Source of the DNA: Mycobacteroides abscessus ATCC 19977
GTDB lineage: Bacteria > Actinomycetota > Actinomycetes > Mycobacteriales > Mycobacteriaceae
Direction of reading: 5' to 3'
DNA length: 64,000 nt
Assembly (NCBI RefSeq): GCF_000069185.1
Contig: NC_010397.1
Coordinates: forward strand, 3,038,001 to 3,102,000
A program made the position numbers and the translations under genes. Below the pieces are notes generated by a model. It was not told the origin of the DNA, made no database searches, and saw nothing but the letters and a program-made list of their open reading frames with translations. Below, piece by piece: positions 22,104 to 24,425 of this stretch (position 1 is the stretch's first letter; each line of letters begins with the position of its first letter).

Positions 22104-22982
22104 TCACCGTCCGCGGGCCGCCGGATCGGCGGTGGCTTCGATCTTGAGCACCAGGCCTTCGCGCACCGTGAGGGTAACCACCGCGAAGAGCCTGCGCTGG
22201 GTGAAGGCCAGCAGCACCGGCTGCCCGAAGGGGCCGCCCACCAGGGTGGCGCCGGGACCCAGGTAGACGAGCAGGTTGGTGGCGACATCGGTGCGCCCGC
22301 GATTCACCTGCGGCGGCGGGGCGGGATCTCCGAGGATGGTGCCCACCCCCCAGACCCCGGGATCTAGTACCGCCATCAACCCGGTCAGATCGCCTTGGGC
22401 ACATGCGGTGACGAATTTTTCGATCAGCTGCTGATGCTCGGCGCCGGTGACATCGGTGGAGCGTGCCGCGGACTGCTGGAATCGGGTCCGGGCTCGGCGG
22501 GCGAGCTGGCGGCAGGTTCCCACCGGGCGGCCCACCGTCGACGCGATCTCCTCGAACGGCACTGCGAACACGTCATGTAGGACGAACGCCACCCGCTCAC
22601 CGGGGCTCAGCGAGCGCAACACCTCCAACAGGGCACCGCGTACCTCATCATCCAACGTAACCCGATCCGCCGGATCGGTAACCGCCGGAACATGCAGCGG
22701 GGCAGCGGATTCCACCACGGATGCGACCCCTGTCCGCTCACGGCGCATACGCGCCGAACGCAGCTGATCCAGGCACAACCGGCCCACCACCACCGACAAC
22801 CAGGCACGTGGCTCGTCAATCTCCGTCTCCTCAGCCCGGGCCAGCCGCACAAATGCCTCCTGGACCGCGTCCTCGGCGTCGCCGATATCGCCGAGCATCT
22901 GATAGGCCAGGTTCACCAGGTACGGGTAATGCTCGCGCCAAGCCGCGGTCACCAGCGCGTCGTGGGTGGACGAGGAGCTCAT
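22104..22982 (-). CDS. ECF41-type RNA polymerase sigma factor with SnoaL-like C-terminus
   Basis: A 292-residue extracytoplasmic-function sigma factor. Residues about 15-85 are sigma-2 (WLSVVVGRLCLDQLRSAR at its end), and about 118-170 sigma-4 (LSPGERVAFVLHDVF, then the helix-turn-helix FEEIASTVGRPVGTCRQLARRAR). Residues about 180-292 form the SnoaL-like domain that replaces an anti-sigma factor in ECF41 proteins and tunes activity. ECF41 genes usually lie beside carboxymuconolactone decarboxylase, oxidoreductase or epimerase genes, and here an NmrA-like gene is divergent. The ATG is 6 bases after a CGTCGT -10 element, so its transcript is probably leaderless and autoregulated. Confidence 0.9.
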   Translation of the reverse strand: MSSSSTHDALVTAAWREHYPYLVNLAYQMLGDIGDAEDAVQEAFVRLARAEETEIDEPRAWLSVVVGRLCLDQLRSARMRRERTGVASVVESAAPLHVPAVTDPADRVTLDDEVRGALLEVLRSLSPGERVAFVLHDVFAVPFEEIASTVGRPVGTCRQLARRARTRFQQSAARSTDVTGAEHQQLIEKFVTACAQGDLTGLMAVLDPGVWGVGTILGDPAPPPQVNRGRTDVATNLLVYLGPGATLVGGPFGQPVLLAFTQRRLFAVVTLTVREGLVLKIEATADPAARGR

Positions 22983-22988
22983 GTCATT

Positions 22989-23016
22989 ACGACGATTCCG
23001 TGACCCCGAAAGTTAC
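22989..23016 (-). promoter_or_regulatory. ECF41-type promoter of the sigma factor gene
   Basis: Reading on the minus strand: GTAACT (-35, 23016-23011), a 16-base spacer, CGTCGT (-10, 22994-22989), then 6 bases to the ATG. ECF41/SigJ promoters are known to have a GTCACA-like -35, a 16-base gap and CGTC. This is one half of a mirror-image pair with the promoter at 23028-23055. Confidence 0.7.
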
Positions 23017-23027
23017 CGGTCCCGCCA

Positions 23028-23055
23028 GTAACTTTTCGGGCCCGCGCCCCGTCGT
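23028..23055 (+). promoter_or_regulatory. ECF41-type promoter of the NmrA-like gene
   Basis: GTAACT at 23028-23033, a 16-base spacer, CGTCGT at 23050-23055. Both hexamers and the spacing are identical to the opposing promoter of the sigma gene. The two -35 elements form an inverted repeat separated by 11 bases. The predicted start of transcription falls near 23062. Confidence 0.7.
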
Positions 23056-23118
23056 ATTCGCGTGGGCCAAAGACCCAGCTGGACACCATCTCGAACCTCC
23101 CGAATTGGAGTACCCGTC

Positions 23119-23979
23119 ATGACAATTCTCGTCACCGGCGCTACAGGCAATGTGGGCCGTCCTCTTGTCGATCTACTGGTCGCGGCGGGGGCCGACGTCC
23201 GCGCGGTCACCCAGCATCCAGAACGCGCGAGCTTTCCACCACAGGTCGCCACCGTCGCGTCGGCCCGTGCTGGGCTGGACGGAGTCACGGCAGTTTTCCT
23301 GAATTCGCGCGCACTGGGAGAAGATCTCGACAGGTTCGTGAATCAATCCGCGCGGGAAGGAGTTACCCGCCTCGTCGCGCTCTCCGCCATCAACTGCGAC
23401 GACGACTTCTCGCGCCAGCCATCCCGGTTCCGTGGCGACCGGAACAAAGAAGTAGAGCAGTACGCCGCCGGCTCCGGGCTTCAGTGGGTGAGTCTGCGTC
23501 CGACGGTCTTCGCCTCCAACTTCCTGGGCATGTGGGGCACGCAGCTCCAGGCAGGCGATGTGGTCCGCGGACCGCACGCGGCGGCGTCGGCAGCCCCGAT
23601 CGCCGACAGCGACATCTCCGAGGTCGCGGCGCGGGCCCTGCTCACCGACGAACTCCTCGGCCAGCGCATCCCGCTGACCGGCCCGCAGGCTTTCACCAAC
23701 GCCGGCCTGGTCGCAGTGCTCGGCGACGTCCTGGGCAGGCCACTGGAATACCAACAGGTCTCCGACGATCTCGTGCGCCAGCGCTTCGGCCGCCTGGGGT
23801 TTCCCGCCGGATTCGCCGACGCGTATCTGGCGATGCAGGCGGCCACCGTGACCGAGCCCGCCATCGTCACCCATGACGTAGACCGAATACTCGGACGCCC
23901 TGCCGAGACGTTCGCGTCCTGGGCCAACAGATTCCGGACCCGATTCGCCCCCGCAGAGTTCGCGGCGCAGAAGGGATGA
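23119..23979 (+). CDS. NmrA-like NAD(P)-binding protein (atypical SDR)
   Basis: A 286-residue NmrA/epimerase-type protein beginning MTILVTGATGNVGRPLVDLL, with the glycine-rich TGATGNVG NAD(P) motif and the NmrA-like spread of short conserved blocks (LVALSAINCDDD, GLQWVSLRPTVFASNFL). The substrate is unknown; relatives reduce quinones or act as redox sensors. The ATG at 23119 has GGAG 8 bases upstream. An in-frame GTG at 23062 lies 6 bases after the ECF41-type -10 and could give a leaderless form with 19 extra residues. This is the expected ECF41 partner gene and overlaps the next gene by 4 bases. Confidence 0.85.
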   Translation: MTILVTGATGNVGRPLVDLLVAAGADVRAVTQHPERASFPPQVATVASARAGLDGVTAVFLNSRALGEDLDRFVNQSAREGVTRLVALSAINCDDDFSRQPSRFRGDRNKEVEQYAAGSGLQWVSLRPTVFASNFLGMWGTQLQAGDVVRGPHAAASAAPIADSDISEVAARALLTDELLGQRIPLTGPQAFTNAGLVAVLGDVLGRPLEYQQVSDDLVRQRFGRLGFPAGFADAYLAMQAATVTEPAIVTHDVDRILGRPAETFASWANRFRTRFAPAEFAAQKG

Positions 23980-24425
23980 CGACCGTGACCAACACACAAC
24001 CACCACGGTGGCTCAAGCCAATGAACAAAGTGGTGCGCGCCTTTCATCGCCTCGGCGTCTCCACCGGCCCGGCCATGGTGCTGACCGTCCCCGGCCGAAA
24101 GACCGGTCAACCTCGTCCCACACCGATCACACCCTTCGAGGTGGACGGTCAGCTGTTCGCGGTCGGCGGCTATCCCGGCTCGGATTGGGCCCGCAATGCC
24201 GCCGCGGCCGGTTCCGGAACGCTCACCAAAGGCAACAAGGTCCGGCATATCAGGATCGTCACCGTGCCGCCCCACGTGGCGCGACGAGTGCTTCGCGAGT
24301 TCGCCCTGCAAGTCCCCGTGGGCGTGCGGTTCGCCAAGAGCGCGGGACTTGTTCGGCAGGGCACTCCCGATGAGTTCGAAGGCCTGGCCGGCACGCTATC
24401 GGTATTCCGGTTCGATCCGGACTAG
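23976..24425 (+). CDS. Ddn-type deazaflavin (F420)-dependent nitroreductase family protein
   Basis: A 149-residue split-barrel protein of the nitroreductase/deazaflavin-dependent family, which in mycobacteria uses reduced F420 to reduce quinones and other substrates. Visible family features are the N-terminal amphipathic stretch (PPRWLKPMNKVVRAFHRLG), LTVPGRKTGQPRPTPITPF, and GGYPGSDWARNAAAAG. It overlaps the NmrA-like gene by ATGA, so both are likely under the ECF41-type promoter, and it meets DUF3710 tail to tail. Confidence 0.85.
   Translation: MTTVTNTQPPRWLKPMNKVVRAFHRLGVSTGPAMVLTVPGRKTGQPRPTPITPFEVDGQLFAVGGYPGSDWARNAAAAGSGTLTKGNKVRHIRIVTVPPHVARRVLREFALQVPVGVRFAKSAGLVRQGTPDEFEGLAGTLSVFRFDPD

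What the first reader, a model, noticed from the sequence alone, without database searches (positions are those of the whole stretch)
22989..23055. Mirror-image promoter pair for an ECF41-type sigma factor and its partner genes
In the divergent gap both strands carry GTAACT, exactly 16 bases, then CGTCGT. The two -35 elements form an inverted repeat (CCCGAAAGTTAC/GTAACTTTTCGGG). Each -10 is followed by 6 bases and then a possible start codon (ATG of the sigma gene, GTG at 23062). Known ECF41/SigJ promoters have a GTCACA-like -35, a 16-base gap and CGTC. The symmetry implies that one sigma factor drives both its own gene and the NmrA/Ddn redox pair, giving a two-way autoregulated switch without an anti-sigma factor.
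Basis: partly seen in the sequence, partly recalled or inferred. Interest (0 to 1): 0.72.

Follow-up and report, generated by a model that had tools for sequence, protein, structure and literature searches.

The report
Mirror promoters of mycobacterial SigI
Two near-identical promoters, back to back, appear to switch on a mycobacterial sigma factor (SigI) together with the redox genes beside it; the arrangement is conserved across many mycobacteria and recurs at a second set of redox genes, a variant of a scheme already known for related sigma factors.

Summary
Both strands carry GTAACT-N16-CGTCGT at 22989-23055 (0.02 matches expected in the window); exact GTMACTT-N15-CGTC occurs nowhere else in the 5.09 Mb genome. 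The sigma factor is SigI, with an NTF2/SnoaL-type C-terminal fold but without the ECF41 WLPEP motif (0 of 87 orthologues) and without the ECF41 TGTCACA -35. Of 89 SigI loci, 88 have GTAAC-N17-CGTC before sigI and 84 have the mirror element towards nmrA-ddn. The distance between the two -35s varies (4, 11-13, 20-25), which favours two promoters over one operator. Where nmrA and ddn are both gone (3 loci) the mirror element is gone; where the pair moved away from sigI (G060, G189, G186) it kept its element; six nmrA homologues not tied to sigI lack it. Seven SigI genomes have a second mirror pair, mostly between a multicopper-oxidase unit and a ddn paralogue. That SigI itself reads these promoters is inferred, not shown. 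Verdict: new variant of the known ECF41/COE arrangement.

The parts
22104..22982 (-). sigI: ECF sigma factor, 292 aa, sigma2 + sigma4 + C-terminal NTF2/SnoaL-like domain
   Evidence: NCBIfam SigI equivalog 439.4 bits; Pfam Sigma70_r2 and r4_2; best solved sequence relative SigJ 5xe7; fold search SigJ and SigG1 first, then ketosteroid-isomerase folds
22989..22994 (-). -10 element CGTCGT of the sigI promoter; ATG follows after 6 bases
   Evidence: ATG 8 nt after CGTC in 75 of 87 orthologues and 9 nt in 10 of 87
23009..23016 (-). -35 element GTAACTTT of the sigI promoter
   Evidence: 88 of 89 loci have GTAAC-N17-CGTC; the three following T are 0.98, 0.97, 0.94
23017..23027 (.). 11-base gap between the two -35 elements; its length varies between species (4, 11-13, 20-25)
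23028..23035 (+). -35 element GTAACTTT of the nmrA-ddn promoter
   Evidence: GT[AC]AC-N17-CGTC in 84 of 89 loci, 75 GTAAC and 9 GTCAC
23050..23055 (+). -10 element CGTCGT of the nmrA-ddn promoter (consensus of the set on this side CCGTCCTT)
23119..23979 (+). nmrA-like NAD(P)-binding gene, 286 aa; a leaderless GTG start at 23062 would add 19 residues
   Evidence: Pfam NmrA and NAD_binding_10; reading frames
23976..24425 (+). ddn-like F420H2-dependent quinone reductase family gene, 149 aa, overlaps nmrA by 4 bases
   Evidence: Pfam F420H2_quin_red; TIGR00026

Best explanation
Positions 22989-23055 are a pair of back-to-back SigI promoters. RNA polymerase carrying SigI reads GTAACTTT (-35) and CGTC (-10), with 17 bases between GTAAC and CGTC, towards sigI on one side and towards nmrA-ddn on the other. 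When the C-terminal NTF2-like domain of SigI is relieved by an unknown signal, SigI raises its own (probably leaderless) mRNA and that of the NmrA/Ddn-like redox pair together: a positive feedback loop with a built-in output and no separate anti-sigma factor. Shown: both elements, their nearly invariant internal spacing, their conservation, and their co-inheritance with the sigma gene and partner genes. Inferred: that SigI is the sigma that uses them, the leaderless starts, the signal, and control by the C-terminal domain (by analogy with ECF41 and SigJ).
For: 0.02 sites expected in the window; the two are the only exact GTMACTT-N15-CGTC sites in the genome. Sites before sigI in 88 of 89 SigI loci; a free scan of 15-19 gave 17 in each. 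Mirror element with N17 in 84 of 89 on a free scan of 13-21; the rest are three loci without nmrA and ddn (L013, L047, L049), one with N18 (L056) and the broken locus L088. Named set, overlapping the first: 64 of 64 sigI-facing, 63 of 64 nmrA-facing. Ten of ten loci without a detectable nmrA but with ddn in the fetched stretch keep the mirror element. nmrA-ddn away from sigI in G060, G189 and G186 kept its element. Six nmrA homologues not tied to sigI (L223, L224, L228, L229, two in L232) have none within 170 bases upstream. Exact GTAACTT-N15-CGTC sites average 2.61 in 89 SigI genomes and 0.50 in 109 others; reversed-pattern control 1.04 and 0.65. sigI ATG 8 nt after CGTC in 75 of 87. Seven second mirror pairs, all in SigI genomes; the seven SigI-less genomes with sites on both strands have no such pair.
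Against: No transcript or binding data were seen. Another sigma factor could read these sites: in M. tuberculosis sigI is reported to be under SigJ (passages of PMC4821874), and SigJ-type paralogues exist in this genome (L114, L115). The genus-wide count partly follows from sigI carrying its own element. In nine loci the nmrA-side -35 is GTCAC while the sigI side stays GTAAC, so the two sides need not be read equally well. In G035, which has sigI, the nmrA homologue that lies elsewhere has no element (L228); I take it for a paralogue because it has no ddn beside it and resembles the one in SigI-less G154, but it can be counted against. Two SigI-less genomes have an nmrA homologue (G154, G158). 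Thirteen SigI genomes lack one at E below 1e-80. Four more distant homologues of the second-locus membrane gene, also in SigI genomes, lack the element. One second mirror pair (G036) has no oxidase unit beside it.
Confidence: 0.82

Rival explanations
1. Cascade: the sigI-facing promoter is read by SigJ or another ECF41 paralogue rather than by SigI, so the locus is a relay and not a self-feeding loop.
For: A SigJ-dependent promoter upstream of sigI is reported for M. tuberculosis (Homerova 2008, seen only as cited in PMC4821874); SigJ-type paralogues are present here; both kinds share the CGTC -10 and, in nine loci, a GTCAC -35 on the nmrA side.
Against: The sigI-facing -35 is GTAAC in 88 of 89 loci, while ECF41 sites are TGTCACA (PMC3426412 passages). 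The same element faces nmrA, and unlinked copies were found in genomes that have SigI; SigI-less genomes, all of which hold some ECF match (198 of 198), show counts no higher than the reversed-pattern control. None of the 12 paralogue loci of the own genome (about 1.5 kb flanks) shows GTAAC-N17-CGTC.
Confidence: 0.1
2. Dyad operator: the inverted arms GAAAGTTAC/GTAACTTTC bind a dimeric regulator that represses or activates both genes, and the ECF-like look is secondary.
For: The arms extend past the -35 hexamers. Gap lengths cluster at 4, 11-13 and 20-25 with none between in 83 loci although the tree needs 14 changes of class, a weak helical-phase signal (post hoc p 0.0075). Three loci have an extra inner GTTAC near the short gap (L004, L005, L016; read).
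Against: Each arm keeps 17 bases to its own CGTC while the distance between the arms ranges from 4 to 25. One arm stands alone where the partner genes are lost (L013, L049). Single elements occur elsewhere (L239, L244, L245). TTT after AAC is usual in ECF -35s (recalled).
Confidence: 0.06
3. Only one side is active and the other is decay or coincidence.
For: The nmrA side differs in consensus from the sigI side (CCGTCCTT against TCGTCGT), and its -35 is GTCAC in nine loci.
Against: Both sides are conserved over 88 and 84 of 89 loci; loss of the left element was seen only where nmrA and ddn are both gone (L088 not counted).
Confidence: 0.03

Closest known systems
ECF41 sigma factors with COE partner (Wecke et al. 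2012, PMC3426412, passages seen)
   Same: C-terminal SnoaL/NTF2-like extension, no anti-sigma gene, epimerase-type (NmrA, PF05368) neighbour, promoter with about 16-base spacing and CGTC -10; divergent <ECF< >COE> loci often with the motif before both genes (55 loci, 36 ECF-side and 41 COE-side promoters).
   Different: -35 GTAACTTT instead of TGTCACA; no WLPEP motif in 87 of 87; the element faces sigI in 88 of 89 loci; a ddn-like second gene; a second mirror pair at another locus.
M. tuberculosis SigJ and the SigJ-dependent sigI promoter (Homerova 2008, seen only as a citation in PMC4821874)
   Same: Same superfamily of sigma factors; SigJ is the best solved relative.
   Different: There a second sigma factor drives sigI; here the data favour SigI itself. 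Whether the M. tuberculosis sigI locus has this element was not examined.
SigI, NCBIfam PRK09635.1
   Same: Scores above the curated cut-off.
   Different: No difference found; I found no description of its promoter in the paper searches.

Membership tests
SigI (NCBIfam PRK09635.1) | score above the curated cut-off | tested here: met
   439.4 against 317 bits
ECF41 | C-terminal SnoaL/NTF2-like domain | tested here: met
   AlphaFold2 model, mean pLDDT 74.7; 10-residue blocks from 181 on 73-93, the last 53; fold search SigJ E 1.7e-12 but whole-chain TM only 0.32-0.35, and ketosteroid-isomerase/NTF2 folds with target TM about 0.5-0.6; no Pfam SnoaL hit at E 0.001
ECF41 | WLPEP motif in the sigma2-sigma4 linker | tested here: not met
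   0 of 87 orthologues; the own-genome paralogues L114, L115, L117 show it. Motif described in PMC3426412. DGGG and NPDK, recalled as further ECF41 motifs, also 0 of 87
ECF41 | promoter TGTCACA-n16-CGTC before the COE gene | tested here: not met
   spacing and CGTC match; -35 is GTAAC in 88 of 89 (sigI side) and in 75 of the 84 nmrA-side elements, GTCAC in 9 of 84
ECF41 | neighbouring carboxymuconolactone decarboxylase, oxidoreductase or epimerase | tested here: met
   NmrA PF05368, listed as epimerase in PMC3426412
ECF41 | no adjacent anti-sigma factor | tested here: met
   neighbouring reading frames; the frame downstream of sigI has a weak alpha/beta-hydrolase match below Pfam's cut-off. 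Only the nearest neighbours were looked at
autoregulated ECF promoter | promoter responds to its own sigma factor | not testable with these tools
   no expression or binding data

The most novel reading that the evidence does not exclude
The mirror pair is a functional unit in itself: two SigI polymerases bound back to back, about one or two helical turns apart, help or exclude each other, so the cassette is kept and copied whole (sigI/nmrA-ddn, then a multicopper-oxidase unit/ddn paralogue). In one clade a recognition-helix change (Gly155 to Ala in sigma4.2) goes with a third-base change in one -35 (GTAAC to GTCAC), catching promoter and sigma factor partway through a shift of specificity.
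Probability: 0.2. Interest if true: 0.6.

Novelty: new variant of a known kind. Interest (0 to 1): 0.42.

Why it matters
SigI is one of the less understood mycobacterial sigma factors (recalled). A tight predicted promoter (GTAACTTT-N14-CGTC), a small predicted regulon of redox genes and a natural record of gene loss, relocation and a second cassette make its targets and its autoregulation directly testable. The clade with mixed -35s offers a simple test of which residue sets the third base of the -35.

Tried and rejected
A conserved GTCACTTTGCGCG...CGTC site in four relatives (L094, L095, L099, L104) looked like a further target. It begins 125 bases before a transporter-like frame and, by eye, reads as conserved coding sequence; no copy within 3 mismatches is in the own genome; dropped. 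Single GTAAC-N17-CGTC sites in the own genome: 19 in all, 17 besides the two, against 46 for the reversed pattern, so background.

Helical phasing of the gap: p 0.0075, but post hoc and on hand-picked lineages; tandem copies of the GTTAC stretch can be read in L004, L005 and L016. Kept only as a hint.

Gly155Ala with GTCAC: one clade, one event, 17 other fixed differences in the same output, and L087 has GTCAC with Gly; the independent-pairs test had 2 pairs and no power.

Relatives outside mycobacteria (16 loci, L207-L222): none has GTAAC-N17-CGTC in about 330 bases before the match; L207 and L220 have GTCACA sites and the two Nocardiopsis loci have GTCACA sites facing each other.

Rows dropped: L088 (sigI of G134 is broken between two records; the other part is L230) from element and protein counts; L048 from protein and tree counts because no start was parsed; L231 could not be judged because nmrA lies at a contig end; L233 and L234 (36-37% homologues) have no element and were not used. 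In one search, 17 of 74 nmrA starts were not parsed.

Full report
Observation. Shuffles give 0.02 matches per window for a spacing of 14-18. In the whole 5.09 Mb genome the form GTMACTT-N15-CGTC occurs exactly twice, here.

The genes. The minus-strand gene is SigI by NCBIfam, with sigma2 and sigma4. The AlphaFold2 model puts an NTF2/ketosteroid-isomerase-type domain at the C-terminus; the best solved relatives are SigJ and SigG1. Across the gap lie an NmrA-like gene and an overlapping Ddn-like F420H2 quinone reductase family gene. No anti-sigma gene is adjacent.

Conservation. In 198 genomes of the genus, 89 SigI loci (E below 1e-80) were read. With the spacing free between 15 and 19, each sigI-facing GTAAC...CGTC found has 17 bases between: 88 of 89, the exception L088 being a broken locus. 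On the nmrA side, with spacing free between 13 and 21, 84 of 89 have GT[AC]AC-N17-CGTC, one has 18 (L056), three have none (L013, L047, L049), and L088 was not counted. In the 64 named mycobacterial loci, which overlap the first set, the counts are 64 and 63. The consensus is GTAACTTT-N14-CGTC; between the elements conservation falls. The sigI ATG is 8 bases after CGTC in 75 of 87 and 9 in 10, which suggests a leaderless mRNA (leaderless transcripts are common in mycobacteria by the titles listed).

Natural experiments. (a) nmrA was not detected beside 13 SigI loci (plus L088). Ten of these hold ddn in the fetched stretch and keep the mirror element; three have neither gene and no mirror element. 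(b) In G060 and G189 nmrA-ddn sits elsewhere and keeps a complete mirror pair, now opposite a small membrane protein with a multicopper-oxidase-like frame; in G186 it keeps only its own element. In G060 the sigI locus shows what looks like a decayed left arm (L047). (c) nmrA homologues not linked to sigI (G154, G158, the copy in G035, a second copy in G159, two on a G163 contig) have no element within 170 bases; the G035 copy lies in a SigI genome and can be counted against the reading. (d) 76 of 78 genomes with an nmrA orthologue (E below 1e-80) have SigI; 13 SigI genomes lack one. (e) Site counts are 2.61 per SigI genome against 0.50 in SigI-less genomes, with reversed-pattern controls 1.04 and 0.65. 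Part of this follows from sigI carrying its own site.

A second cassette. Seven genomes (G001, G036, G062, G080, G100, G118, G155) have another mirror pair, gap 8-10. In six of them one side is a small membrane protein and a multicopper-oxidase-like frame (Pfam checked for G001 only); a ddn paralogue was found on the other side in six (not in G118). G036 has no oxidase unit there. The listing was cut, but the seven SigI-less genomes with sites on both strands were all seen and none has a mirror pair. The membrane protein occurs in 12 of 198 genomes, all 12 with SigI (4.4e-5 if genomes were independent, which they are not); the 8 nearest homologues have the mirror pair and the 4 distant ones (51-59% identity) do not. 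Since the partner is a ddn paralogue or nmrA-ddn itself, the cassette probably arose by duplication of the first; that is inference. Single elements lie before an NAD(P)-binding protein gene (L239, Pfam; L245 similar by eye) and a small hydrophobic protein gene (L244).

Promoter pair or operator. Among 83 loci on the tree the distance between the two -35s is 11-13 in 65, 20-25 in 15 and 4 in 3, while each element keeps its own 17-base spacing. That fits two separate promoters. The three gap classes need 14 changes on the SigI tree and nothing between was seen; a helical-phase preference is possible (p 0.0075, post hoc) but tandem copies can be read in three loci.

Specificity. ECF41 promoters are TGTCACA-n16-CGTC (PMC3426412, passages). 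SigI has GTAAC, closer to the general ECF 'AAC' (same paper). In nine loci the nmrA side alone has GTCAC. Eight of them (L064, L075, L077, L078, L080-L083) form one supported clade, probably the M. rhodesiae/M. sphagni group: that name is my inference from matching contig lengths. In these eight, residue 155 in the sigma4.2 recognition helix is Ala, against Gly in 79 of 79 others. The ninth, L087, has GTCAC with Gly. This is one event among 18 fixed differences and proves nothing alone.

Known or new. Divergent ECF41 loci with the motif on both sides were described in 2012, and epimerase/NmrA partners too. What I did not find in the held library is a description of the SigI -35, the mirrored pair in mycobacteria, or the second cassette; most subscription papers are not held, and Homerova 2008 was seen only as a citation. 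I therefore file it as a new variant of a known kind. The step that SigI itself uses these promoters remains inferred.

Noticed in passing
23056-23121 and L002-L007: In the seven Mycobacteroides loci a GTG 8 nt after CGTC is in frame with nmrA in five (L001, L002, L003, L005, L007); in L004 an ATG at 6 nt is in frame instead; in L002, L003, L005 and L007 the ATG at 6 nt opens a short frame of 18-21 aa. In L006 the nmrA start was not parsed. Possible leaderless N-terminal extension or coupled short ORF.
   Followed up: partly
L214, L215 (Nocardiopsis): Distant SigI/SigJ relatives with two GTCACA-N16-CGTC sites that face each other instead of standing back to back.
   Followed up: no
L239:1744-2457, L245: Single SigI-type element before a gene for an NAD(P)-binding (epimerase-like) protein in G017 and, by eye, G051.
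   Followed up: partly
L244: Single SigI-type element before a small hydrophobic protein gene in G116; family not searched.
   Followed up: no
L004, L005, L016: Extra GTTAC copies inside the gap, apparently from short tandem duplications.
   Followed up: partly
L027, L052, L056: nmrA matches are only partial (152, 87 and 62 bits) while ddn and both promoter elements remain (N18 on one side in L056); nmrA may be decaying there.
   Followed up: no
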